Shown here: positions 13,426-34,724 of the stretch, in pieces
Position numbering within the stretch: the first letter of the stretch is position 1
Layout: every line of letters begins with the position of its first letter
NCBI GenBank assembly: GCA_903831255.1
Contig: CAIKWZ010000025.1
Location: 1 to 37,474, forward strand
Length of the DNA stretch: 37,474 bases
Origin: an uncultured Alphaproteobacteria bacterium
GTDB taxonomy: Bacteria; Pseudomonadota; Alphaproteobacteria; Caulobacterales; Hyphomonadaceae
Direction: 5' to 3'
Position numbers and translations under genes: made by a program
Notes under the pieces: model-generated
Seen by the model: only the letters and a program-made list of their open reading frames with translations
Told to the model about the DNA's origin: nothing
Database searches by the model: none

Positions 13426-14670
13426 TCAGGCGGTCTTCGCCATCCGAGCTTCGATCCGTTTGACGTTATCCGCCCGGACGCCATGCGCCTTTGCGAGACT
13501 TCGCCATCCTGCGAGCGCTTCAAGCGTCTGAGCTATGATGTCCCGCACTGTCGTCTTGGGAAGCTTGGCGTCTGCGCCCAGTTTGGAGAGGTGCGGCGCG
13601 CCAGGGCTCGTGCCTTCACCCAGGACCATAGTGGATTGCTCGCCGCCCGGGCCGCCGGAAAAGGTGAGGTCATAGGCGGGCGAGAGCCGCCATTCGCCCC
13701 GCGCATTCATCAGAAAGGTAAAGTTTTTCGCGTGATCGTCGCGGTTGTGCGCAAGGACGTTGAATACGGCGAGGCGGAACATTTTTTCCGTCTCGCGGAT
13801 ATCCCGCGTGATGATCATGCTCAACGCCAGAAGATCCTGATAGTCGAGCGTCGGGGTTCTATGATCCGCATGCAGAATTCCTGACGCCGTGTGGGCGTGC
13901 AGGCGCGATGCGCCGTCCCGATCAAAACGTCTGGTCGCGAAATATCCCGCGCCCTTCTTTGCCGGAAACAGTTGCGTTTCAGTCATCTCTACGCCTGCAG
14001 CCTTCGCCATCAGGGCATAAACGCACTCAATAGCGCCGGCATCGGCGCCATCCTGAGCATGAGAGAATTTGACAAGCCAGGGTGCGAAACCCTCGGGCAG
14101 GACGGCTCTGCCGTGTACGATTGCGCCCGTGGCGGAGTTGTATCCAATCAGCGCCTTGGGGCTCGCGCCCGCCGATGAACCGCTGAGAGCGATGAGTTCG
14201 GCGAGGACATCATCCGCCTGACCTTCCAGCACGTCCTGCGCCTGAGCCGCCAGCCGATCGAGGTCGATCACGCCTCCTGCAGGTTCAGGCCCGATCTCCG
14301 GCTCGTAAGTCAGCGCGCCCATACCGCCTTTGCCCACATGGGCGAGCCGGTCGAGCGGACTTATCTGCCCGGGACGCACGCCTTGCGCACGCATGGCCCG
14401 GTCAAACAACAGGCGGCCCCAGCCATCCGGAATGCTGTCGTTGAATACTCCCGCCAGGCCCTCGAAGAGCGCCGTATCAAAGCTGCGGAGCCCAGGCTGG
14501 AGGGGAAGGCGCTGCGGCGAAATCTCCAGTCCGCTCGCGATGAAGGCGCGATCGTACTCGAAATAGATTTTCTGCTGGCGGATCGCGAGCCGCCCGACCC
14601 TCTGCGGGCCGTCTCCGAAGTCAAGACTGACATGGACGGAACTGACGGGCGTGAAGGTCATGTCCGCCAT
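13426..14670 (-). CDS. hipA: HipA-family serine/threonine kinase toxin (module 1)
   Basis: 414 residues from 14670; the ATG at 14661 gives an ATGA overlap with hipB and is an equal candidate. The N-subdomain 1 reads SVHVSLDFGDGPQRVGRLA, and FNDSIPDGWGRLLFD is the conserved HipA turn. Residues 163-172 (SGSSAGASPK) are the Gly/Ser-rich loop. K201 in WLVKFSH binds ATP. NRDDHAKNF (309-317) is the catalytic loop, and D334 in PAYDL is the metal-binding Asp. HipA kinases phosphorylate glutamyl-tRNA synthetase in E. coli; relatives have other tRNA-synthetase or translation targets, so the target here is unknown. All catalytic residues are present. It is co-transcribed with hipB. Confidence 0.93.
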   Translation of the reverse strand: MADMTFTPVSSVHVSLDFGDGPQRVGRLAIRQQKIYFEYDRAFIASGLEISPQRLPLQPGLRSFDTALFEGLAGVFNDSIPDGWGRLLFDRAMRAQGVRPGQISPLDRLAHVGKGGMGALTYEPEIGPEPAGGVIDLDRLAAQAQDVLEGQADDVLAELIALSGSSAGASPKALIGYNSATGAIVHGRAVLPEGFAPWLVKFSHAQDGADAGAIECVYALMAKAAGVEMTETQLFPAKKGAGYFATRRFDRDGASRLHAHTASGILHADHRTPTLDYQDLLALSMIITRDIRETEKMFRLAVFNVLAHNRDDHAKNFTFLMNARGEWRLSPAYDLTFSGGPGGEQSTMVLGEGTSPGAPHLSKLGADAKLPKTTVRDIIAQTLEALAGWRSLAKAHGVRADNVKRIEARMAKTA

Positions 14671-14966
14671 CCATGCTTACGCGCCGGTCTGCGGTCCGCT
14701 TCAAGCACCTCCTCGATTGAAGCAAACTCGCCTGGCTCCGGAGCGCTGGCGTCGATCATGCGCTCAAGCCCGCCGACGACCATCAGGAGTTTGAAGAGCG
14801 TTTCGACAGAGGCTGCGCCAGTGCGCTCGAACTTGCGCAGCGTGCCCAGGGGAACGCCGGAGCGGGAGGCGAGCCCAGCCTGGGTAAGGCCAATCGCCAG
14901 ACGCCGCGCCCGGACGTTTTCGGCGAGCGTCTCCTGAGCCTTGGTGACGGTCAAAATCGCTATCAT
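14658..14966 (-). CDS. hipB: HipB-like XRE antitoxin/repressor (module 1)
   Basis: 102 residues. Residues about 10-70 form a Cro/C1 helix-turn-helix (RRLAIGLTQAGLASRSGVPL, LRKFERTG). The C-terminal ~30 residues (EFASIEEVLEADRRPARKHG) are a tail of the kind HipB uses to contact HipA. Its 3' end overlaps the hipA start. No clear Shine-Dalgarno precedes the ATG at 14966, and the start codon lies inside the left arm of the inverted repeat 14959-14989. The mRNA may therefore have a very short leader, or the true start may be a TTG at 14954. Repression of its own operon by HipB is expected from the family. Confidence 0.9.
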   Translation of the reverse strand: MIAILTVTKAQETLAENVRARRLAIGLTQAGLASRSGVPLGTLRKFERTGAASVETLFKLLMVVGGLERMIDASAPEPGEFASIEEVLEADRRPARKHGWRT

Positions 14967-15137: not shown

Positions 15138-15266
15138 TTTCACGTTCAAGTTGCAACAAGGCTCCCGCTGACGGCCGTCACCCTCAGCGGTGAGCTGCGC
15201 CTTGTTCGGAAACGCGGCCTGATCGTTCGCGACCGCCAAGGCTCTCAGACCTGCCGATCGGGATGA
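15138..15266 (+). pseudogene. C-terminal winged-helix remnant of a HipA-like protein
   Basis: The frame reads VATRLPLTAVTLSGELRLV then RKRGLIVRDRQG before a stop. This closely matches the C-terminal extension of HipA module 2 (SLPASTLSGALRVLEGRG, LIVRD, encoded at about 30187-30276). The DNA around CGCGGCCTGATCGTTCG is almost the same in both. No HipA kinase domain precedes it here, so it is a leftover 3' end lying directly upstream of hipBA-1 in the opposite orientation. Confidence 0.7.
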
Positions 15267-24649: not shown

Positions 24650-25444
24650 ATGACCGAGGTTATCAGCGTTCGCGATACCGGACATGTGCGGACGATCACG
24701 CTCAATCGTCCTGAGCGGAAAAATGCGCTCAGCGACGAGCTCGCCTGGGCGATCGTCGGGGCGATTGAAGAGGCGGCGCGCACGGACGACGTTTGGGTGG
24801 TGGCGCTTACGGGGAGCGGGGATTCGTTCTGCGCCGGCCTCGATCTCACCGGCCCGCCCAAAATGTCGCCCCTGACCCCGCAAAGCGCCCAGCTCGACGA
24901 TATCCACTGGGTGGGACGCTTTCTGATCAGCATCCGCAAGGTCTGCGACAAGCCTGTGGTGGCCGGCGTCAACGGCTCAGCGGTCGGGGCGGGCCTCGGC
25001 CTCGCCATGGCGGCCGATGTCCGCCTGGTTGCGCGAAGCGCCCGGCTCATGGCTGGCTATACGCGCATTGGCGGATCTCCGGACGGAGGGCTCACCGTGA
25101 CCCTGCCGCAGGCGATGGGCTATGAGCGCGCCCTCCGGTTCATGATGGAGAACCGGACGGTGACCGGGGAGGAAGCGGTCCATCTGGGAATGGCGGGCGA
25201 AGCGGTCGACGACGCGATGTTCGCCGAACGCCTCGAGGCCTATTGCCAGGACCTCTGCCAGTGGTCGCCCATCACGCTGAGACTGCTCAAACGGGGCATG
25301 GTGAAGTCGCTGGAGACGAACGACCTCGAACAGCAGATGCGATACGAGCTCTCGAACATCCGTATCGCCTTCGCCAGCGAAGATGCGAAGGAAGCCCGGA
25401 CCGCGTTCTTTGAGAAGCGCAAGCCTCAGTTCAAGGGACGCTGA
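24650..25444 (+). CDS. Enoyl-CoA hydratase/isomerase-family (crotonase) protein
   Basis: 264 residues. The crotonase CoA-binding signature is present (TITLNRPERKNALS, FCAGLDL, GVNGSAVGAGLGLAMAADVR). The two Glu residues of true hydratases are not in place: the first position lies in GAGLGLA and the second in GYTRIGG. Instead D145 stands in SPDGGL, as in PaaG-type or other enoyl-CoA isomerases. An isomerase or similar C=C-shifting reaction on acyl-CoA is therefore more likely than hydration. The last ~90 codons and downstream sequence are duplicated at 27635-28080. GGGAGAGAGA precedes the start. Confidence 0.92.
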   Translation: MTEVISVRDTGHVRTITLNRPERKNALSDELAWAIVGAIEEAARTDDVWVVALTGSGDSFCAGLDLTGPPKMSPLTPQSAQLDDIHWVGRFLISIRKVCDKPVVAGVNGSAVGAGLGLAMAADVRLVARSARLMAGYTRIGGSPDGGLTVTLPQAMGYERALRFMMENRTVTGEEAVHLGMAGEAVDDAMFAERLEAYCQDLCQWSPITLRLLKRGMVKSLETNDLEQQMRYELSNIRIAFASEDAKEARTAFFEKRKPQFKGR

Positions 25445-25600
25445 AGGCGGCGCGCTGGTATCGACCCATGCCCACGCCCTTGACGGTCGCCCTGTAGGGT
25501 CGCCCTACAGGGTCGCCATGCGAGCACGTTCCATTGTGTGGATTGCAAGGACCTCGATGCACCGGTTTCTGAGCCGACTCGGCTTGGAGTTTGGTTTATT
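25174..25600. repeat. Long direct repeat, copy 1 (crotonase 3' end plus downstream DNA)
   Basis: Pairs with 27635-28080 in the same orientation. Over the coding part (25174-25444) I count about eight substitutions and a 2-bp net deletion. The non-coding part is more diverged and includes the 13-bp repeat region; similarity fades near 25600. The 2.0 kb between the copies holds the IS66 remnant and fic. Confidence 0.88.
25490..25512. terminator. Palindromic hairpin after the crotonase gene
   Basis: CCCTGTAGGG (25490-25499) and CCCTACAGGG (25503-25512), a perfect 10-bp stem with a 3-base loop, 46 bp past the stop codon. It overlaps the short-period repeat seen better in copy 2. It acts plausibly as a terminator; there is no U-run. 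Confidence 0.5.
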
Positions 25601-25962
25601 CAACAACGAAACGATCGAAGCGACGTTTATAAAATCAGGTTCGCGCCTGCATTCTCAAGATTACGGGCTGCATTACGCCTCGTGCTTCACTTCGGCATTG
25701 ACGCATAGTTTCCAACCGTCGTCACGAAGAGCGGTCACGCGCGGGGCTGATGGCAGGAGCCGAGCCGAGTCGTGCGCGTGTTTTTAAACAAAGTCCTTCA
25801 GCAGCGCGGCGCTCGAAGCGGCTTCGACAGGCTCCCGGAGATAGCCTGCCTGAGTGTACGGAGCGGTTTGTTGACGGGAGCTGATCTGAGGAAGTTCGCG
25901 GCTGCGAAGCCCCCCTCGGAGCTCCCCGTGAACCTGCACGGAGACCAACGCCAGTCTCGCCT

Positions 25963-26193
25963 CTGGCTCTCGAGACCGTCCGGCGCATCGACGCTCTGTT
26001 CGACATCGAACGCGACATCAACGGCAGGCCGACGGAAGAGCGTCTTGAGGTTCGCCAGGAGCGCAGCGCCCCTCTCCTCGCGGATCTCGAGGTGTGGATG
26101 CGTCAGACTGAGGGAGGTCTCTCGAGCAAGACCGACGTCGCCAGGGCGATGGATTAGATGCGAAAGCGCTGGGCCGCGTTCGCCAGTTTCCTT
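25963..26193 (+). mobile_element. IS66-family transposase remnant
   Basis: The plus strand reads LALETVRRIDALFDIERDI, then RPTEERLEVRQERSAPLLADL, EVWMRQTEGGLSSKTDVARA, MD, a TAG stop, then MRKRWAAFASFL. This is the part of the IS66 DDE transposase just before its C-terminal catalytic block; the stop replaces a conserved Tyr codon (intact proteins read DYMLKRW). The reading frame is lost on both sides and no terminal inverted repeats were found. About 77 codons of dead transposase lie 73 bp from the fic 3' end. Confidence 0.85.
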
Positions 26194-26266
26194 GCAAGTA
26201 TCAGGCAGACCTTCAGACCACCCCGAAGCCGTTCCTCGCGCGACAATAGCGGCTCATCGGCCATGC

Positions 26267-27460
26267 TCAGCTCTCAAGAAACAGGCGCGGGAACAAGACA
26301 TCCAGCGCGCTGACGGGGAAGCGCAGCGATACGGCGCCCTTCTCGCTGTCGGAGCCGAGGATGCGTTCCTGAATGAGTTGGCTGAGAAGCGCACGGCTGG
26401 TGCGTTCCTTGAGGCCGGTGATGGCCTCTGCGTCGCCGCGGGCAATCTCGCCGCGATGGAGGATCTCGGTAAGTAACGTGGCGGCTTCGGGTCGCCACCC
26501 TTGCTGCGCAGCATACCGCTTGAGACGGGCAGAAAGCCCATCGAGCGCGAACATCTCGGTCATGAAGCGTACTTGGTCGAGACAGACTTTGAGGAACCAC
26601 ACGGTGAACGTTTCGAGCGCGCGGTGTGAGAGGTTGCCGCGCCCGTCGAGATCGCCCTGACGCGGCATGTCGGCGTGATCCATCATACTCTTGTATTCGG
26701 TTCGGCTCTCGAGGCCGCGCGCAAGACCGCGGGAGACTGACCACAAACCGTGCGCGCCGATGCCGGCTTTCAACGCCATGGCATGTGTCATCAGGCGGCT
26801 TACGCGGCCGTTGCCGTCCGGAAACGGGTGGATGAAGTTGAGGCGGTGATGCGCTGCTGGCAGCGCGAGAATGCGGGCGCCCGCTCCCAGCCGCGCGAAG
26901 GCGTATCTTGCTTCGAAGTAGTGGACGAACGACTCCACCACGTCGCTGCCTGGCGGCACGTGACGACCGACGGCCACATCGTGTTCAGGCGCCGACCGAA
27001 AGGCGCCGGGGGTCATCAGAACGCTGCGGCCCGCCCCTTCAATACGCAGCATGGCTTCGGGCGCGTCTCGATAAAACTCACGGTGCAGCGTCTGGATAAA
27101 GTCCGCGGACGCCGGATCCGCCAACGTCCCCTTCGCGAAGTCGGCGTCGATCGTGCGCTGGATACGAATGTGCTGCCGGGCTTCGAGCTGGAGGTTGCGG
27201 CGGCGCTCGTCCGTGTCGAGGTCATCCACGAGCGCCCGCTCGATATCGCGCGGGCGCGTGTTATGCCCTTCGATCAGGTTCGAGTAATAGCAGTTCATGA
27301 CCCGAACGAGATCGGCCAGGTTGGCGGCGGTCTTGGGATGCAGGCGACTGGCGAGCGCGCTCGCGGCGGCCGGCAACTCAGTGACGAGGTCGAGCAACTC
27401 CCCTCGCGCTTCTTCCAGAAAGCACGGCTCAAGCCGGGAGGGGGTTTCAAGTGTCGTCAT
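26267..27460 (-). CDS. Fic-family AMPylase/nucleotidyltransferase with its own inhibitory helix
   Basis: 397 residues. The Fic catalytic motif is HPFPDGNGR at 211-219. The inhibitory motif S60-NLI-E64-G lies N-terminal in the same chain, so it is a class II Fic protein, normally held inactive by the Glu pointing at the gamma-phosphate. Residues about 330-395 form a winged-helix-like end ([20 protein letters not shown], then [19 protein letters not shown]). Family members transfer AMP, or other nucleotide groups, from ATP to a protein; some act as toxins or gyrase modifiers. The target is unknown. The start ATG at 27460 has a weak site. It stands alone between the crotonase duplicate copies. 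Confidence 0.93.
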
Positions 27461-27482
27461 TTGCCGATGTGGTCTCTTTCAC

Positions 27483-27506
27483 ATTTCCTTGTAACATATA
27501 GGAAAT
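27483..27506. promoter_or_regulatory. Candidate operator/promoter of fic
   Basis: ATTTCCT (27483-27489) and AGGAAAT (27500-27506), a perfect inverted repeat with a 10-bp spacer, 23 bp upstream of the fic start in AT-rich DNA. Fic proteins with a C-terminal winged helix often bind their own promoter. Confidence 0.45.
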
Positions 27507-27634
27507 CCCAGAGATTCGGGAGTTATTTTGCCGATGTTGGGCGCCGATGTCCTTGCCGGTCAATTTTGCTTTTAAATGAACAGGTTAGAGGCAACCTACT
27601 GGGGCAGCCCTGCCGGTCAGCCTACCTGATGGGC

Positions 27635-27903
27635 AGCGGTCCATCTGGGAATGGCGTGCGAAGCGATAGACGACGCGATGTTCGCCGAACGCCTCGAGGC
27701 CTATTGCCGGGACCTCTGCCAGTGGTCGCCCATCACGCTGAGACTGCTCAAGCGGGGCATGGTGAAGTCGCTGGAGAGGAACGACCTCGAACAACAGATG
27801 CGATACGAGCTCTCGAACATCCGTATCGCCTTCGCCAGCGAAGATGCGAAGGAAGCCCGGACTGCGTTCTTTGAGAAGCACTCTTCAGTTCAAGGGACGC
27901 TGA
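27635..27903 (+). pseudogene. Truncated duplicate of the crotonase-family gene (3' third only)
   Basis: Carries codons equivalent to residue ~176 through the end of the gene at 24650. There is no start region. A 2-bp net deletion near 27876 shifts the frame just before the original stop, so an open frame continues downstream into unrelated sequence. Eight substitutions or so against the intact copy, several of them synonymous, indicate a duplication that is not recent. Confidence 0.88.
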
Positions 27904-27943
27904 AGGCGGCGCGCGTCTATCGACCCCTGCCCACGCCCATGGT

Positions 27944-28002
27944 GGTCGTCCTGCACGGTCGCCCTGGACGGCCGCCCTGCACGATCGCCCTGCACGATCG
28001 CC
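27944..28002. repeat. 13-bp tandem repeat (minisatellite), 4.5 units
   Basis: Units start at 27944, 27957, 27970 and 27983, with a partial unit at 27996-28002. The consensus is GGTCGCCCTGCAC, with one or two changes per unit. The matching place in copy 1 (25485-25516) has only about 2.5 units and forms a palindrome there. Confidence 0.8.
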
Positions 28003-28080
28003 AAGCGAGGCGGTTCCTTTGTGCGGATCGCAAGGACCTGGATACTCTTGGCTCCGACCTTTCGCGGCTCGGAGTTTTTC

Positions 28081-28469
28081 AATCCTCTCGAGGCCGAGCT
28101 TTTCCAGAGGAGCGCGTCGTGCGCGAAGCCTGTCAAACGCTTCGGCGCCGGCTCACATCCCCTTGTCTCTTCGTTGTTCAGCCTCACGCCTGACCGCCCT
28201 TTGACGGGCCGATCCCGAGCACGGTTCATGCGCATGCCGGATGATGATGGCGGACAAGATTTTCACACGCTGGCGATCGCGCGGTCATCGCGCCTCTGCC
28301 GCAACAGAGAGACGCGGCGACTTGCCGAAGACTTGATGTTGGCTGCACACCCCGCGCAACGTCAGCTGAGCTCAGCGTCAGATGGGCTCGGCGTCGGTTG
28401 AGCTCAGCGCAGCGTTCAAGGCAGCCATCGCAGATCGCAAATCCGACTGCCGTCCAGCCGCCCAGAGAC
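28081..28469. other. Intergenic, no gene recognised
   Basis: This is the space between the crotonase duplicate and the hipBA-2 promoter. GAGCTCAGCG occurs twice, near 28369 and 28399. Open frames lack ribosome-binding sites and protein character. Confidence 0.35.
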
Positions 28470-28557
28470 GTATCACACGTGACACATTATCCAGTAAAAT
28501 TTTTATATGTATCTTATATGATACGTTTTAATGGACTCCACGTATCAAACATGATAC
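28470..28557. promoter_or_regulatory. hipBA-2 operator array: GTATC-N6-GATAC sites
   Basis: Two perfect palindromes, GTATC-N6-GATAC, at 28509-28524 and 28542-28557, with centres 33 bp apart (about three turns). A third, degenerate site, GTATC-N6-GACAC, lies at 28470-28485. AT-rich DNA surrounds them (about 28486-28540). The form parallels the E. coli HipB site TATCC-N8-GGATA. The last site ends 30 bp before the ATG at 28588, so HipB binding should cover the promoter. Confidence 0.75.
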
Positions 28558-28587
28558 TCAGCCGCTAACCTGTGAGATTTGAATCTT

Positions 28588-28848
28588 ATGAGAGACGTGA
28601 TGGACTTGCATTCGCTCGGCCGAGAAATCAGACGGCAGCGGGACGCCGCGGGCCTCACGCAGGAGCAACTCGCCGCCATGGCGCTGGTGAGCCGGCCGAC
28701 CATCGCCCGGCTGGAGACTGGTCGTGCAAGCGACCTGGGCTATCGCTCCATCGTGCGCATCCTGAACGCGCTGGGGCTCGATCTCCGGGTCTCCACACTG
28801 AACCGCGGTCGGCCGACACTCGAAGACCTCGAGGCCGAGCAGGCATGA
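28588..28848 (+). CDS. hipB: HipB-like XRE antitoxin/repressor (module 2)
   Basis: 86 residues from the ATG at 28588, or 82 from the ATG at 28600, which has GAGAGA close upstream; the choice is open. The Cro/C1 helix-turn-helix covers most of the protein: LGREIRRQRDAAGLTQEQLA, then ALVSRPTIARLETGRA. A short tail (GRPTLEDLEAEQA) follows. Its stop overlaps the hipA start as ATGA, so the two are translationally coupled. Autorepression through the GTATC/GATAC sites is expected. It is unlike the HipB of module 1 in length and tail, so the modules are not recent copies of one another. Confidence 0.92.
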   Translation: MRDVMDLHSLGREIRRQRDAAGLTQEQLAAMALVSRPTIARLETGRASDLGYRSIVRILNALGLDLRVSTLNRGRPTLEDLEAEQA

Positions 28849-30305
28849 TCCGTATCTGGACGGATGGCGAGATCGCAGGCGCCCTGGACAGGCTTGGCAA
28901 GGCCGGAACGTCGTTCGCCTACAAGGCGGACGCGCGTGCGGAGCGCGCCGTCTCCATCACCATGCCGCACCGTGTGCCGTCCTATGACTGGTTGCACGGC
29001 CTCGTTCCCATTTTCGAGATGAACGTGCCGGAAGGCGCGTTGCGCGCGCGACTTATACGCTCCTTCGCGAAGGCGACCGGGATGTTCGACGATTTTGATC
29101 TTCTCTCGGTCGTGGGCCGGACCCAGCTCGGTCGCATCCGCTACTCGGCGATGGACGGCGGGCTCGATGAGGAGACGCCGTTTCAATCAGTCGATGAGAT
29201 CCTGCGCGCGCGTAGAGACGGCGGTCTCTTCGATCATCTGCTTGACAGGTTTGCGCAATACTCGGGCCTGAGCGGCGTGCAGCCGAAGGTTCTGATCCGC
29301 GACGAGGGCAAGTTTTCCGCAGGGAAGGCCCGTCGGTCATCCAGCCTCCGCGCTGCGACCCACATCGTAAAGCTGTGGGACAAGGACGAGTACCCCGAAC
29401 TTGCTGCGAACGAGTACTTCTGTCTGCTGGCCGCTCAAAAGGCCGGCCTCGATGTCCCACGGTTCACATTATCGGATTCAGGCGATGCCCTGATTATCGA
29501 GCGTTTCGATCTCACCGATCAAGGCTATCTCGGCCTTGAAGATTTTTGCGTGCTCAACGGAGTAGGGACCGCGCAGAAATATGCGGGCAGCTATGAGTCC
29601 CGTCTGTTCAAACGCGCACGTGACTTCATCGAGCCGGCACACCATCCCCACGCGATGCAGGCCCTCTACAGGCTCTTCGTGTTGAATTGCGCGCTGCGCA
29701 ACGGCGACGCACACTTGAAGAATTTTGCGCTCACATACGACAGGGTTGATGGTCCCTCGCGCCTCGCGCCCGTGTTCGATCTCGTAACAACGAGGGCCTA
29801 TTTGCCGACGGATGCGATGGCGCTCACTCTCGAGGGCTCAACCCGCTGGCCCGACGCCAAGCGCCTGATGCGTCTTGGGCAACTCCGTGCTGAGCTTTCC
29901 CCTGCTTCGGTCATGCAGATCTTCGAGGCGACCGCCGACGCCATGAGCGACGCCTGGAAGCCCGCCGCCGACTATTTTGCGAACTGCACAGAACCCGGTG
30001 TCGGCGAACGCATGAAATCGGCGTGGGAAGACGGCATGGCCGAAGCCCTGGGGCTCGTCCGCAGTCCCGGTCGAGCAAGCCCCGGGCCCAGCCCGCGACG
30101 TATGATGCCTCGGGCCCGATCCCAGGCGGTGGTGCTTGAGCGCTTGCGAGCGGAAGGCGGAACAATCACAGGAACGCTCGGGTCGATTGCGGTCAAGCTC
30201 TCGCTGCCCGCGAGCACGCTCAGCGGCGCATTGCGCGTTCTGGAGGGACGCGGCCTGATCGTTCGTGACAGCCGCAGTGTCAGACTTACGGATCGAGACG
30301 TGTAG
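28845..30305 (+). CDS. hipA: HipA-family kinase with extra C-terminal winged helix (module 2)
   Basis: 486 residues, longer than the usual ~440. The HipA N-terminal subdomain runs to about 115. GLSGVQPKV (141-149) is the Gly-rich loop, K176 in HIVKLWD the ATP lysine, NGDAHLKNF (286-294) the catalytic loop and D312 in PVFDL the metal Asp. Residues about 420-486 are an added winged helix (SQAVVLERLRAEGGTI, LSLPASTLSGALRVLEGRG, LIVRDS), of the type found in DNA-binding proteins. The kinase may therefore bind DNA or its own promoter as well as its protein target. All catalytic residues are intact. The same C-terminal module survives as a scrap at 15138-15266. Confidence 0.93.
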   Translation: MIRIWTDGEIAGALDRLGKAGTSFAYKADARAERAVSITMPHRVPSYDWLHGLVPIFEMNVPEGALRARLIRSFAKATGMFDDFDLLSVVGRTQLGRIRYSAMDGGLDEETPFQSVDEILRARRDGGLFDHLLDRFAQYSGLSGVQPKVLIRDEGKFSAGKARRSSSLRAATHIVKLWDKDEYPELAANEYFCLLAAQKAGLDVPRFTLSDSGDALIIERFDLTDQGYLGLEDFCVLNGVGTAQKYAGSYESRLFKRARDFIEPAHHPHAMQALYRLFVLNCALRNGDAHLKNFALTYDRVDGPSRLAPVFDLVTTRAYLPTDAMALTLEGSTRWPDAKRLMRLGQLRAELSPASVMQIFEATADAMSDAWKPAADYFANCTEPGVGERMKSAWEDGMAEALGLVRSPGRASPGPSPRRMMPRARSQAVVLERLRAEGGTITGTLGSIAVKLSLPASTLSGALRVLEGRGLIVRDSRSVRLTDRDV

Positions 30306-30319
30306 GTCATGGGGCCTCA

Positions 30320-30536
30320 GCGGGCGTCGCGAGCGCGGCCCTGCATCGGGATCGAGTTTGTGCAGCGGGATGACCCTTTCGCTGATGACGAGCCATTGAC
30401 GTTCGATCGCGTTACGGACAAGGGCGTTGCCATAAATCGCTTACGCGGCGCCTCCCGCATCGCTGACCCAGTCGCGGATTAACGCGATGGCGGCGCGAAT
30501 AACTTCAGGGCATTTGCGGATGCGTTCAGAAGGCAT
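30320..30536 (-). pseudogene. Broken HepT-like (DUF86) gene
   Basis: From an ATG at 30536 the minus strand reads MPSERIRKCPEVIRAAIALI, then RDWVSDAGGAA and a TAA stop. In the same frame it continues GNALVRNAIERQWLVISERV and IPLHKLDPDAGPRSRRPL. The AIERQxLVISE stretch matches HepT/DUF86 proteins, the RNase partners of MNT nucleotidyltransferases. The part that should hold the Rx4-6H active site is missing, cut off where the hipA-2 3' end stands. A partner nucleotidyltransferase was not found upstream. Confidence 0.6.
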
Positions 30537-31096
30537 TCACGCGATTCTATCGCCTGGCGCTGAGACGTTCGGGACGCCTGACAAGTTCCACCCCGATGCG
30601 GATGGCCGCTCCGAATTCATCCACGGCAACCGCTACCTGTCTCCATAATCCCCTCCGGGAAAACAGGGCGTCCAATGACGATTTGAAAAACGAAATGTCC
30701 CGTATGGGCCGTTTCAGAGATCGCAAACCTCACCACGGACTAAACTTCCCGGCTGGCAAAAGTCATTTCAGAGACGACGTCGTCGCACACCCGAATGCGT
30801 CAACCATCCGGCGACCTCGCAGCATCGGGGCTCGAACTCCGTCCGAAGCGAGAAAACAGCGGTATGGTGGAGCAGACCCACCCAAACCGGTTACGATTGC
30901 CATCGCCGTTTCCAGGCAAGAGCGGGATTCCACGAACCGCGCCAAGCCTATCCCTCAGACGACGTCAGGCGGACAGCGAACGCGACCTCCCTCGTGGAGC
31001 GCCCAGAACCTGTTCCGGCCCATGCTGTGGCCGCTCGCCTAAGCACAGAGTTCAACGCGAACGTCAGGGAATAAGGGACGCTGAGACCTCAGCGTT
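30537..31096. other. Intergenic, probable debris
   Basis: The minus strand at about 30550-30640 has a short protein-like frame (RQVAVAVDEFGAAIRIGVEL, then VRRPERLSARR and a stop), perhaps the end of a lost gene, but no family is recognised. The rest of the region shows nothing. Confidence 0.35.
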
Positions 31097-31936
31097 TCAG
31101 CCCGGACCGCCATAGCTGACCGCCATGCCCTCGCGGACATCCTGCTGGATGCCGTATTGCGGGAAGGGATACCGAAATCCATTGCGCGCAAGGGCCTTCA
31201 TGCCCGTGATGGCGGAGAGCAGATGCTCAGGCGGGCTCGCCATCAGCATCTCATCATCAAGAACGCCGCCATAACGCCGCTCCGCGAAACAGGGGATGGA
31301 AAGGCTCACCGAGCGCGTGACCAGGGCCCGCCCCCAGCTGTCGGCACAGGCCGATTCTCCCACCACGCTCCAGTCGAAGCGTTTATAACCGCTCCACTGA
31401 AGGCCGTTGATCACGTACATCATCGCTCCGGGCGTCGCATAAAAGAGGACGATGTCCGGATCGGGAATGCGGGCGCCCAGAGGGCCGACCGCGAGAGCCT
31501 CGTAGCGTCCATCCGGCACGCAGTGCATCGCGGCCTGATGGGCGGCCGCATCCTCTGCGGTCTCGTACCAGACGCCCTTCATGTGTTCGCCCGAGGACCA
31601 GGCCGGCGTCTTCGCCGCGCCGAGGCCGACGACGGCTCGGCACTGGGCGCCCACGAGATCCTCACCGGTCACCCCGACCGTCCAGCCGAGGCGCGAGGCC
31701 TGGCCGACGATCTGGTCGAGGGTGTGCACGGACCGCGGACGGCGAATGCGCTCAATCGCTTCCATGTCCGTCCGGCGTTCGAACAGCTTCATGCAGAAGA
31801 CATGGCTGCGGAGCCTGAGGAGCGCCTGAAGCTCCTCGGCGAGCGCCTTGTGAGAGAGCTGTGCGGACGAGGCGGCCTCCGCTGAGCCAGCCGCCTCTGC
31901 GCCTGACGCCTTTGCGCCTGTCGCCTGTGTGTCCAT
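31097..31936 (-). CDS. DUF169 family protein
   Basis: 279 residues. The first ~30 residues are an Ala/Ser/Gly-rich repeat (TGAKASGAEAAGSAEAASS) that is probably disordered. The DUF169 body follows: VFCMKLFERRTDMEAIERI, TGEDLVGAQCRAVVGLG, GRYEALAVGPLGARIPDPDI, and CADSWGRALVTRSVSLSIPC near the Cys-containing centre. The family is found in archaea and in bacteria that handle organic sulfur, iron or aromatic compounds, but its reaction is not established. GAGAGAGGA lies before the ATG. It stands alone between the HepT remnant and the patatin gene. Confidence 0.88.
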   Translation of the reverse strand: MDTQATGAKASGAEAAGSAEAASSAQLSHKALAEELQALLRLRSHVFCMKLFERRTDMEAIERIRRPRSVHTLDQIVGQASRLGWTVGVTGEDLVGAQCRAVVGLGAAKTPAWSSGEHMKGVWYETAEDAAAHQAAMHCVPDGRYEALAVGPLGARIPDPDIVLFYATPGAMMYVINGLQWSGYKRFDWSVVGESACADSWGRALVTRSVSLSIPCFAERRYGGVLDDEMLMASPPEHLLSAITGMKALARNGFRYPFPQYGIQQDVREGMAVSYGGPG

Positions 31937-32097
31937 CGTCCTCTCTCCCCTGTCGGCCGCCCCGGTTTCCGAGGCGGCTCACGCTTTAGCCTGACGCCTC
32001 GCCCTCAAGCCCCGGCGGGCTCATCCTGTCTTGGACCCAGACATTCGCTCATCCTCAGCGCGGCGCGCCTTGGGAAGCGCTCGCCTCTGACGGGCGT

Positions 32098-33300
32098 TCA
32101 GGGAACCGGACACCCGGCGGTCCCTGCCGGCGGGGTGAAGGGCGCCGCGATATGCTTGCGGACATCGGCTTCGGTCAGCCACACCTTACGCGTAGCGGCG
32201 CACGAGCGCGCGTAATCAAAAAGGGACCTCATCCGCCCGGCGTCGAAATCGAAGGATCCGGAAAAGTCATAGCGACGCGGAATATAGGTGAATCGCATGT
32301 TCATCCCGTGCAGCTTGGCAAAGGACGAGGTCAGCAGGATTTCGGTGCGCGCCATGCGCGTCAGGGTGACGTTGAGGGCGCGGATGGCGATGGTGACCGC
32401 ATTGGCCTCCGCCGTTCTCACAAACGGATCAAGCTGGCCGTTGATCACGACATAGATGTTGGCGCCGCGCAGAACCGAGAAGCGGTCATCGGACAGAAAG
32501 GCGACGTCCGGAAAGATGAAGAAGGGAACGCTCACCCCGCCGTCGACATGAAGCTCGTCATTCGGACCATCCTGCCCGTCGACCCGGAAGATGACGGGCG
32601 CAAAGACGCCCGGAATGCTGGCGGAGGCCACCAGGACATCGGTGAACAGCTTCTGCGCCTCTGCTCCGCCCTTGCGGGCGATGACGCCCATGTCCCAGAG
32701 GACCGGGATCTCGGCGTCGAGATTTGTGGTCGCCACCAACAGGGTGCGACCGCCTGCGCTCTCGCGGGCGACGGCCTCGATCATCTCCGGGGTCACAAAA
32801 TCCGAGACGAGACCGCGCAGCTCCGCTGCGTCCAGAACGCCGAGACGAAAGAGCGAGGAGACCCCGGCCGTGCGCGCCAGATCCTCCGAGCGCCCGCCGG
32901 TATAGGCCCGCTCCAGATCATCGTCCCAGTCGGGCCCGAGGAAGGCGAAGGGCGCAATCAGCGCTCCGGTTGAGACCCCGGTCACCACCTCGAAGACCGG
33001 CCGGCGGCCGGCGGCTGTGAGACCGGCAACCACCCCGGCGCCGAAGCCTCCGCCCGCCCCGCCGCCCGACAAAGCGAGAACGTCGAGGGTGCCGTCGCGC
33101 GCTCCGGGCCGGGACTTGATGACAGTCTCGTTGAGGATGCGCAGGAAGCTGTCATGGTCCGGATTGACGATGCGGACCTCTTTGGGAAAGCCCTCCACCT
33201 TCGCGGTCGGGTCGGGAAGTCCGCCCGGGGCCTCCATGCGGCCTACGGTGACGCACGAGGCGAGCGCCAGGGACAGGAAAAGTGCAACCAGACGGCGCAT
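32098..33300 (-). CDS. Patatin-like phospholipase lipoprotein
   Basis: 400 residues. The lipobox LASC gives C16, so it is probably attached to a membrane as a lipoprotein. The patatin Ser-Asp dyad is clear: S110 in VVTGVSTGALIAPF (a GxSxG turn) and D253 in HVDGGVSVPFF. The oxyanion Gly-rich loop is LSGGGAGGGFGAG (78-90). Members hydrolyse phospholipid or lipid esters. It is a stand-alone gene. The 386 bp upstream are free of genes, with a GCCGTCC/GGACGGC hairpin at 33371-33388. Confidence 0.9.
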   Translation of the reverse strand: MRRLVALFLSLALASCVTVGRMEAPGGLPDPTAKVEGFPKEVRIVNPDHDSFLRILNETVIKSRPGARDGTLDVLALSGGGAGGGFGAGVVAGLTAAGRRPVFEVVTGVSTGALIAPFAFLGPDWDDDLERAYTGGRSEDLARTAGVSSLFRLGVLDAAELRGLVSDFVTPEMIEAVARESAGGRTLLVATTNLDAEIPVLWDMGVIARKGGAEAQKLFTDVLVASASIPGVFAPVIFRVDGQDGPNDELHVDGGVSVPFFIFPDVAFLSDDRFSVLRGANIYVVINGQLDPFVRTAEANAVTIAIRALNVTLTRMARTEILLTSSFAKLHGMNMRFTYIPRRYDFSGSFDFDAGRMRSLFDYARSCAATRKVWLTEADVRKHIAAPFTPPAGTAGCPVP

Positions 33301-33686
33301 GTGCGACCCTCAACCAGAGGCGCGCACTCTAGCACCCCAGGGCGCGCTCTCGCCAGCGCCCTCATGCATCGCCGTCCAGAAGGACGGCTTGATCATGGTC
33401 ATTCCCCCAGGGGACGGGGCCGGGACAGGCGCCTGCCCGGTGTGAATGGAGCGCTCCGAAGAGAGGCGCCTCCCAGACGAGGGTGTTACGCAGGGGGGGA
33501 AGCAGCGTCCGTTCAGGCGGCCTCGGGTGCGGCAGGCGGGCCTCTTCAGCTTCACCTCGGACGCGAGGAAGGAGATCGCCAGAGGGAGGCGAGAAGGGTT
33601 GTGCGGGTGACGGGAGGGTTGACCGGACCGTATTCCGGCAGTCATTGTGACACAAACTCCGATCCGCCCGAGCAGGACCTGGCCTT
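33301..33686. other. Divergent intergenic region with a small hairpin
   Basis: GCCGTCC-AGAA-GGACGGC at 33371-33388 is a 7-bp stem with a 4-base loop. Otherwise no gene or clear promoter could be assigned. Confidence 0.45.
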
Positions 33687-34724
33687 ATGACGAACGCCCC
33701 TTCCTCGCCCCTTCGTCTGATGGGCGCCCCCGGATCGCCCTATACCCGCAAGATGGTTGCGACGCTCCGCTATCGCCGGATCGCCCACGCCATCCTCTGG
33801 GGCGGGTTCCGCAATCCTTATCCGGGATACCCCGAACCCAAGGTCAAACTCCTGCCCACCTTCTATTTCCCCACTCCTGAGGGCGGCCTCGAGGCAGTCA
33901 CCGATTCGACCCCCATCACGCGCAGGCTTGAGAGGGAACACGGAGGCCGGTCCGTCCTGCCCGTCGATCCGGTCCTCAACTTCCTCAATTACCTCATCGA
34001 GGACTATGGCGATGAGTGGATGACCAAGGCGATGTTCCACTATCGCTGGGCGCATAAGGCCGATGCGGAAAACGCCGGCCCCCTCCTGATCTTCTGGTCC
34101 ATGCCGCAGATGGACACAGAGGCGGCGGTCGCCGCCTCGCAGGCCATCTCGAAGCGCCAGATCGACCGGCTCTATGTGGTGGGATCCAACGACATCACAG
34201 GCCCCACGATCGAAGCGAGCTTCGAGCGGTTCGTCACGCTCTTTGATCGCCTGATCGAGACGCAGGGCTATTGCCTCGGCCAGCGGCCATCCTCGGCGGA
34301 TTTTGCGCTCTATGGACAGCTCACCCAGCTGACCCAGGTCGAGCCGACCTCCATGGCGGCGGCGAACGCAATCTCGCGGCGGGTGCGGGCCTGGGTCGAC
34401 CGGGTCGAAGATCTGTCAGGGGTCGAGCCGGAAGACGGTCATTGGCTGTCGCGCGAGGCGGCCCGGGAGGCCCTCGCCCCGCTCCTTGCGGAAATCGGCC
34501 GGGTCTATGTACCCTTCCTTCTCGCCAACGCAGCGGCGGTGAAAGAAGGACGGGAGAGTTTCACGACCGAGATCGACGGACGGCCCTGGTCGCAGCCGAC
34601 CTTCCCCTATCAGGCCAAGTGCCTTTCCTGGATCCGTCAGGAGTTCGCCGCTTTGTCGGACGACGACCGGACGATCGCCGCCGATATCCTCAACCGTTCA
34701 GGATGCCAGGGCCTTCTGGCCTGA
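33687..34724 (+). CDS. Glutathione S-transferase-like protein
   Basis: 345 residues. The N-terminal thioredoxin-like domain is visible (LRLMGAPGSPYTRKMVATLR, then a STPITRRLE segment like the GST SxxI motif). Its usual catalytic Ser/Cys/Tyr position is taken by SPY. The C-terminal helical domain carries CLGQRPSSADFALYGQLTQL, the GST N-capping box region. It conjugates or isomerises small electrophiles with glutathione, or lacks catalysis; this cannot be told. AGGA precedes the ATG. The stop is 28 bp before the sulfatase start, so the pair is probably an operon. Confidence 0.87.
   Translation: MTNAPSSPLRLMGAPGSPYTRKMVATLRYRRIAHAILWGGFRNPYPGYPEPKVKLLPTFYFPTPEGGLEAVTDSTPITRRLEREHGGRSVLPVDPVLNFLNYLIEDYGDEWMTKAMFHYRWAHKADAENAGPLLIFWSMPQMDTEAAVAASQAISKRQIDRLYVVGSNDITGPTIEASFERFVTLFDRLIETQGYCLGQRPSSADFALYGQLTQLTQVEPTSMAAANAISRRVRAWVDRVEDLSGVEPEDGHWLSREAAREALAPLLAEIGRVYVPFLLANAAAVKEGRESFTTEIDGRPWSQPTFPYQAKCLSWIRQEFAALSDDDRTIAADILNRSGCQGLLA

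What the first reader, a model, noticed from the sequence alone, without database searches (positions are those of the whole stretch)
25174..28080. Fic gene flanked by direct copies of the host crotonase 3' end, with an IS66 corpse inside
A ~430-bp block (the last ~90 codons of the crotonase gene plus its downstream DNA) occurs twice in direct orientation, 2.46 kb apart. Between the copies lie a dead IS66 transposase piece and an intact Fic gene with its own promoter palindrome. The downstream copy is a headless, frameshifted pseudogene. This could have arisen by a single crossover with a foreign circle or transferred fragment carrying fic next to the crotonase 3' end, or by tandem duplication followed by loss. 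Fic would then be a recent passenger held between recombinable repeats, so looping-out deletion is possible. The coding part is much more alike than the non-coding part, which is itself odd for a dead copy and may reflect gene conversion.
Basis: partly seen in the sequence, partly recalled or inferred. Interest (0 to 1): 0.72.

Follow-up and report, generated by a model that had tools for sequence, protein, structure and literature searches.

The report
Gene-transfer scar holding a Fic gene
A bacterial enzyme gene is followed by a foreign Fic gene and then by a second, broken copy of the enzyme gene's own end, most likely the ordinary scar of one DNA import from a close relative, though the broken copy may now make the import hard to lose cleanly.

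Summary
The repeat is real. The last 90 codons and 3' region of an intact crotonase gene (25171-25593) recur at 27632-28078: 96% over 248 coding nt, then a 2-nt deletion, then 77% over 138 distal non-coding columns. Between the copies lie an IS66 transposase fragment and an intact 397-aa Fic gene. This unit is the left end of an ~8.2 kb block (with hipBA, DUF169 and patatin genes) absent in six relatives, five of which go straight from crotonase to the GST gene. The nearest relative is unassembled here; an eighth has another gene order. All five amino-acid changes are peculiar to the downstream copy. The coding/non-coding contrast resembles that between this genome and its nearest relative around the same gene, so the copies look like versions from two sister lineages. 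A single-crossover import explains this without gene conversion; E. coli experiments give scars of this shape. Loop-out is possible, but crossovers in five of the six longest identical runs would cost the crotonase its conserved C-terminus. Donor, direction and junction mechanism are not shown. Ordinary in kind; the latch idea is the only unusual part.

The parts
24650..25444 (+). intact crotonase / enoyl-CoA hydratase family gene (264 aa); its 3' end from 25171 is copy 1
   Evidence: ORF; PF00378 E 3.3e-46; C-terminal F-x-G-[RK] in 59 of 63 relatives counted
25171..25593 (+). repeat copy 1: crotonase 3' end, 3' region and hairpin with T-rich tail
   Evidence: hairpin 25567-25589 in the terminator scan (that scan as a whole is at chance level, 7 found against 6.6 in shuffles); fold z -3.73
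25485..25517 (+). 13-nt tandem repeat in the 3' region of copy 1, 2.5 units
25945..26192 (+). fragment of an IS66-family transposase gene
   Evidence: PF03050 E 2e-10, profile 169-233 of 284; 88% nt to a longer IS66 reading frame in G014 C36
26267..27460 (-). intact fic gene, 397 aa; HPFPDGNGR and an N-terminal SNLIEG can be read in the translation
   Evidence: ORF; PF02661 E 1.7e-10; best listed plasmid matches 62-66%
27632..28078 (+). repeat copy 2: headless crotonase 3' end with a 2-nt deletion, 3' region and hairpin with T-run
   Evidence: fold z -3.14; not listed by the simple terminator scan
27944..28002 (+). 13-nt tandem repeat in the 3' region of copy 2, 4.5 units
25445..33616 (.). ~8.2 kb block not present between crotonase and GST (or sulfatase) in six relatives; right edge approximate, set by eye where the spacer before GST begins to resemble the relatives' crotonase-GST spacer
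28579..30305 (+). hipB and hipA genes of the larger block
   Evidence: PF01381 E 5.1e-12 / PF13560 E 1.6e-13; PF07804 E 1.2e-44
31097..31936 (-). DUF169 protein gene of the larger block
   Evidence: PF02596 E 6e-36
32098..33300 (-). patatin-like lipoprotein gene of the larger block
   Evidence: PF01734 E 2e-17; lipoprotein by its N-terminus, by eye
33687..34724 (+). GST-like gene that directly follows crotonase in five relatives
   Evidence: PF13410 and PF13417 above cut-off

Best explanation
The repeat is the scar of one homologous crossover that imported a DNA piece from a sister strain or species. The piece carried the crotonase 3' end with its 3' region, next to an IS66 remnant and fic. 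It most likely entered as a linear fragment whose end was trimmed inside the crotonase gene and then ligated into a circle; the circle integrated by a single RecA crossover in the shared 3' end. This leaves one complete crotonase, the foreign cargo, and a second 3' end without a head. Shown: the repeat, the absence of the block in six relatives, amino-acid decay confined to copy 2, and a coding/non-coding contrast like that of a between-species pair. Inferred: foreign origin of one copy, the circle step and the crossover. Fic has the motifs of a self-inhibited AMP-transferase and is probably an accessory toxin- or defence-like passenger; no role of Fic in the event is shown or assumed.
For: Coding part 9 mismatches in 246, distal non-coding part 32 in 138 (Fisher P 1e-8; one changepoint at 25456, 0 of 2000 shuffles as strong). 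A duplicate dead from birth predicts about 8 in 138. G000 against G014: crotonase 16 differences in 629, the spacer before it 46 in 136. Both copies end in a stable hairpin with a T-rich tail (z -3.73 and -3.14) although the last stretch is the most diverged (14 of 35 columns), as expected if both served live genes in separate lineages. At the five amino-acid-changing sites copy 1 has the common state and copy 2 the odd one in an alignment with 11 other crotonases. No trace of a longer second crotonase was established. Relatives of fic occur on plasmids (253 records matched). In E. [quoted passage not shown] 14 were sequenced, 109-950 bp (PMC3240628, passages).
Against: No donor sequence is in hand. 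The E. coli event is very rare (about 4e-9 per recipient in that paper). Only 4 differences in the coding part are at silent positions; about 7 would be expected for lineages as far apart as G000 and G014 (scaled), so the donor must be closer or the coding part was homogenised. The non-coding rate could simply be high: a tandem repeat lies there. Another G000-G014 stretch between genes is 84% identical, not 66% (104 in 664; it holds an ORF on the other strand). One silent site (25291) shows copy 2 with the common state, 8 of 10 sequences. The nearest relative is unassembled across this stretch. No junction signature can be tested without the donor.
Confidence: 0.55

Rival explanations
1. Full-gene tandem duplication: two live crotonase genes stood side by side for a time, then an insertion carrying the IS66 remnant and fic replaced the first two thirds of the second one.
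For: Would also let both coding parts stay alike under selection while the 3' regions drifted; needs no donor.
Against: In the six relatives with this gene order crotonase is single at this place. In 68 GTDB loci the only other crotonase hits of 80 bits or more are paralogues at 28-31% (flanks of many loci are short). DNA before copy 2 shows no similarity to the crotonase 5' part or the spacer before it (38 of 100 shuffles score as high); DNA after copy 1 shows a weak one (4 of 100) that looks like chance.
Confidence: 0.17
2. Partial in-genome duplication, dead from birth, into which the IS66 remnant and fic were inserted; gene conversion later kept the coding part alike.
Against: The non-coding part needs a rate about four times that inferred from the dead coding part, or conversion that ended before the frameshift and the five amino-acid changes arose.
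Confidence: 0.13
3. Site-specific integration: an element recognised the crotonase near 25171, brought its own replacement 3' end (copy 1) and displaced the native one (copy 2).
For: Copy 1 equals G014 in 108 of 108 bases from 25171, while 16 of 521 differ before it, three of them within 12 bases of the edge. A 22-nt perfect run lies near both left edges.
Against: The run of identity is borderline (P 0.05). No recombinase was recognised among the block ORFs scanned with Pfam. No comparable duplicated 3' end was seen in the related loci at the sensitivity.
Confidence: 0.07
4. Assembly chimera, for instance of two strains.
For: The genome is in 76 contigs and its record is unnamed; its nearest relatives are metagenome bins (record titles); the nearest one also breaks here.
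Against: The left junction of copy 2 is abrupt, without shared sequence on its left side (by eye), which an overlap-based assembler would hardly make. Copy 2 carries a frameshift and odd residues at conserved sites, not the sequence of a living gene.
Confidence: 0.06

Closest known systems
Single-crossover integration of re-ligated linear DNA with gene 3'-end duplication (E. coli lacZ experiments, PMC3240628; passages seen)
   Same: Imported DNA flanked by direct copies of a host gene's 3' end; comparable size of the duplicated piece (109-950 bp there; about 270 bp coding plus about 150 bp downstream here).
   Different: Here natural, old enough for copy 2 to decay, in another bacterial class, and the copies look like different lineages; the clones in the paper were Lac-, whereas here the upstream gene is whole.
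Homology-facilitated illegitimate recombination; displaced 3' ends behind new modules in Vibrio type VI clusters (PMC5361080; passages seen)
   Same: One homologous anchor, one non-homologous end; old 3' parts shifted downstream of the newcomer (proposed there as a model).
   Different: The usual product includes a deletion (PMC3240628 introduction passage); here there is a duplication. The anchor is a metabolic gene, not an effector gene.
Integrase-borne islands that replace the 3' end of their target gene (recalled, no call)
   Same: Complete gene, cargo, displaced 3' end.
   Different: No recombinase recognised, no short identical core shown; the repeat is hundreds of bases long.
Self-inhibited Fic proteins with an inhibitory helix (class idea: start of abstract of PMC3667792 in the listing); SoFic-type candidates in PADLOC
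   Same: Catalytic motif and SxxxEG motif present by eye; PADLOC SoFic model 74.7 bits over residues 32-372; solved Fido/FICD relatives from E 7.3e-13.
   Different: Far below the NCBIfam cut-offs for SoFic (18.2 against 550 bits) and for 'mobile mystery protein B' (38.3 against 124.4); activity untested.

Membership tests
Single-crossover integration scar | insert flanked by direct copies of a host segment, one side completing the host gene | tested here: met
   copies at 25171-25593 and 27632-28078; crotonase ORF intact
Single-crossover integration scar | insert absent at the same place in relatives | tested here: met
   absent in six relatives with the same gene order, but they lack the whole 8.2 kb block, so the fic step alone is not dated; G014 unassembled, G091 in another order
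Single-crossover integration scar | donor lineage with the crotonase 3' end joined to the cargo | tested here: inconclusive
   105 family genomes searched with 25594-31090, only the two best candidate stretches of each scored: no listed match joins the two; G014 is unassembled here
Integrase-borne genomic island | recombinase gene in the island | tested here: not met
   none among the nine block ORFs or frames scanned with Pfam; other frames of the spacers were not scanned
Integrase-borne genomic island | short identical attachment core at both ends | tested here: inconclusive
   22-nt perfect run near the left edges, inside a far longer repeat
Composite transposon | two copies of an insertion sequence around the cargo | tested here: not met
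   one IS66 fragment only; the block matches the rest of the genome only in copy 1 and two short weak places
Fic protein, self-inhibited class | Fic domain with catalytic motif | tested here: met
   PF02661 42 bits against cut-off 24; HPFPDGNGR read in the translation (motif recalled)
Fic protein, self-inhibited class | N-terminal inhibitory (S/T)xxxE(G/N) motif acting on the active site | tested here: inconclusive
   SNLIEG present in the translation (motif recalled); no structure made
SoFic equivalog | NCBIfam NF046030 at its cut-off | tested here: not met
   18.2 bits against 550

The most novel reading that the evidence does not exclude
Decay of the downstream copy has turned an excisable repeat into a latch. 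RecA loop-out still removes fic, but crossovers in five of the six identical runs of 20 nt or more would splice the crotonase to the frameshifted copy, giving a 360-aa protein without the conserved C-terminal F-x-G-[RK]; only the 30-nt run at 25426-25455 gives a clean deletion. A passenger would thus be retained by selection on the neighbouring host gene, with no addiction module needed.
Probability: 0.3. Interest if true: 0.45.

Novelty: new member of a known kind. Interest (0 to 1): 0.27.

Why it matters
It is a readable fossil of what is probably one import event: a repeat whose coding part, non-coding part and decay can be looked at apart. It shows that a coding/non-coding contrast between repeats need not mean gene conversion. 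If the latch reading holds, it suggests a general way for integrated DNA to become stable: the flanking repeat decays until excision costs the host a gene. That could be surveyed across genomes.

Tried and rejected
Gene conversion as the cause of the coding/non-coding contrast: set aside as unneeded, since the G000-G014 pair shows a similar contrast, but not excluded. Composite transposon: one IS66 fragment only; elsewhere in the genome the block matches just two short weak places besides copy 1. Homology beyond the hairpin (25594-25944 against 28079-28570): none, 190 of 200 shuffles score as high. A trace of crotonase or sulfatase DNA after copy 1: weak, 4 of 100 shuffles score as high, and the alignment looks like chance G+C-rich similarity; not counted either way. 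A notable fold before fic: not significant, 46 of 200 shuffles as stable. A DUF169 neighbour in one Phenylobacterium locus (L128): the genes between differ; not taken as shared gene order. Using G014 to decide which copy is native: its contigs end at 25278 and about 34937, so it cannot. Literature: two narrow searches returned no paper; they do not show absence from print. No structure prediction and no viral-contig scan was made.
Full report
What is there. The window is the whole contig C25 of a 76-contig, 3.32 Mb genome. An intact crotonase-family gene (24650-25444) is followed by a 3' region ending in a hairpin, about 350 bp without a recognised gene, an IS66 transposase fragment, an intact fic gene on the other strand, and then a second copy of the crotonase 3' end (27632-28078). 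The copies are 2461 nt apart. They are the only two places in the genome that match the 461-base probe at E <= 0.001.

The repeat in detail. Over 246 coding bases there are 9 mismatches. Then come a 2-nt deletion and clustered changes at 25417-25424, a 30-nt identical run across the stop codon, and a diverging 3' region with two 13-nt indels in a tandem repeat. A single changepoint falls at 25456: 12 mismatches in 283 columns before, 32 in 138 after; 0 of 2000 shuffles is as strong. Recognisable homology stops at a hairpin with a T-rich tail in both copies (z -3.73 and -3.14; 1 of 200 shuffles as stable in each case). The simple terminator scan lists only copy 1's hairpin, and its total (7 sites, 6.6 in shuffles) is at chance level, so 'terminator' is an inference. 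Beyond the hairpin there is no similarity (190 of 200 shuffles score as high).

Which copy decays. The differences were set against 11 other crotonase sequences: seven from relatives by handle and four of the 68 GTDB loci, L069, L071, L072 and L073. At 25173, 25196, 25205 and 25317 every sequence with a base there agrees with copy 1; at 25248 all but one do (G014 ends at 25278). These are the five amino-acid-changing sites (E-A, G-C, V-I, Q-R, T-R), and all are peculiar to copy 2. Of the four silent-position differences, 25333 leans to copy 1 as the common state (8 of 10), 25207 is mixed (nearest relative as copy 1), 25402 is uninformative, and 25291 points the other way: 8 of 10 share copy 2's base. 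Random change would give about 78% amino-acid-changing differences; 5 of 9 are seen. So copy 2 is without constraint now, and copy 1 is not.

The empty site. In the family search (105 genomes, own included), eight other genomes have a strong match to the crotonase gene. In five (G004, G007, G009, G013, G020) crotonase is followed within roughly 50-135 bases by the GST gene, and in G006 by the sulfatase that comes after it. In the window the GST gene starts 8.2 kb later, at 33687, and keeps a spacer that by eye resembles the relatives' crotonase-GST spacer. The block thus runs from about 25445 to about 33616 and also holds hipB-hipA, a DUF169 gene and a patatin-like gene. The nearest relative, G014, ends one contig at 25278 and another at about 34937; the stretch between is not in its assembly, so it neither supports nor refutes the empty site. 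G091 (apparently the Hyphomonas johnsonii record L099) has another gene order, with a distant GST-like gene before crotonase and none of the block's proteins detected in the 10 kb after it. The fic step has not been dated apart from the rest of the block.

Where the parts come from. Fic: the best listed plasmid matches are 62-66% identical, on Mesorhizobium and Bradyrhizobium plasmids (253 plasmid records match in all, 13 of them at 60-80%). Of 385 class-level genomes, own included and drawn evenly from a larger group, 18 match at E <= 1e-60, the best at 63%. In 105 family genomes, with two candidates scored per genome, one long DNA match is 69% and four are 67-68%. The Mesorhizobium copy sits beside a Mu-transposase-like gene, a TniB-family gene and an AbiE pair; the Bradyrhizobium copy has IS66 genes about 3 kb away. 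The IS66 fragment is 88% like G014's and 76% like G013's. So fic belongs to the accessory pool of alphaproteobacteria; its direct donor is unknown.

Why two lineages rather than one duplication. If copy 2 had been born dead inside this genome, its coding part (9 in 246) would set the neutral rate, and about 8 mismatches would be expected in the 138 distal non-coding columns; 32 are seen (P about 2e-11 under that simple model). The model would need a four-fold faster non-coding rate. Between this genome and G014 the same gene shows a like contrast: crotonase 16 differences in 629, the spacer before it 46 in 136; the stretch before the thiolase gene differs at 54 of 159, but the thiolase-sulfatase stretch, which holds an ORF on the other strand, only at 104 of 664. 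Two living 3' ends in sister lineages, brought together and one then dying, fits without gene conversion. Against this, silent differences between the copies (4) are fewer than the G000-G014 distance predicts (about 7), so the donor would have to be closer than G014. A long-lived full tandem pair would fit the contrast too, and is kept as the first rival.

Mechanism. In E. coli, import of linear DNA with homology to the lacZ 3' end gave Lac- clones of which 56 of 60 carried a duplicated part of that end; 14 were sequenced, 109-950 bp. The authors ascribe them to circles that had lost part of the lacZ end, for instance by trimming of linear DNA followed by ligation, and that integrated by single crossover; the event was rare, about 4e-9 (PMC3240628, passages). 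That is the geometry here. Strict homology-facilitated illegitimate recombination usually leaves a deletion (same paper, introduction passage) and has been proposed for displaced genes and 3' ends in Vibrio clusters (PMC5361080, passages). The steps for this locus are inferred.

A tentative sign of the crossover edge. Copy 1 and G014 differ at 16 of 521 positions before 25171 and at 0 of 108 from there to the contig end. This could mean that copy 1's 3' end came from a G014-like lineage. The probability by chance is about 0.05; I do not lean on it.

Loop-out. Of six identical runs of 20 nt or more, five lie upstream of the frameshift; a crossover there yields a 360-aa product that loses the C-terminal F-x-G-[RK]. 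Only the sixth (25426-25455, 30 nt) restores the 264-aa protein. The ending is present in 59 of 63 relatives counted; three of the four misses read x-F-K-G and were apparently cut one residue early. Of the 68 loci five were left out because the match stops short (L081, L115, L118, L134, L135). Whether the changed protein is inactive, and whether the cell needs it, is untested.

Verdict. A well-preserved but ordinary kind of scar, with a testable idea about how such scars become stable. Interest 0.27.

Noticed in passing
28845-30305: HipA is 486 aa; its best plasmid relatives align only to about residue 403. The extra C-terminal part matches MarR/IclR-type helix-turn-helix models below their cut-offs, and its DNA (30197-30298) is 72% like 15161-15263 of the same window.
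   Followed up: partly
13426-14966: A second HipA-like gene with an HTH gene before it, judged from the translations alone, so this contig seems to carry two hip-type pairs; not scanned.
   Followed up: no
32098-33300: Patatin-like gene in the block; five relatives hold similar DNA (66-68%) on other contigs (G009 C39, G013 C9, G007 C1, G004 C241, G006 C285), so this gene may have moved.
   Followed up: partly
31097-31936: DUF169 gene; a 71% relative lies 4.4 kb downstream of crotonase, also on the opposite strand, in one Phenylobacterium locus (L128), but the genes between differ.
   Followed up: partly
25485-25517 and 27944-28002: 13-nt tandem repeat with different copy numbers (2.5 and 4.5) in the two 3' regions; copy 1's version folds into a strong hairpin (z -2.75), copy 2's less so (z -1.36).
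   Followed up: partly
28360-28413: 16-nt tandem repeat (CGTCAGCTGAGCTCAG), 3.4 units, between copy 2 and hipB.
   Followed up: no
L042 (G014 C64) and L049 (G014 C56): The nearest relative's two contigs end inside crotonase and inside the second sulfatase, on either side of this block; the stretch between is missing from its assembly.
   Followed up: partly
L047 (G006 C253): One relative has no GST gene here: crotonase is followed directly by the sulfatase.
   Followed up: no
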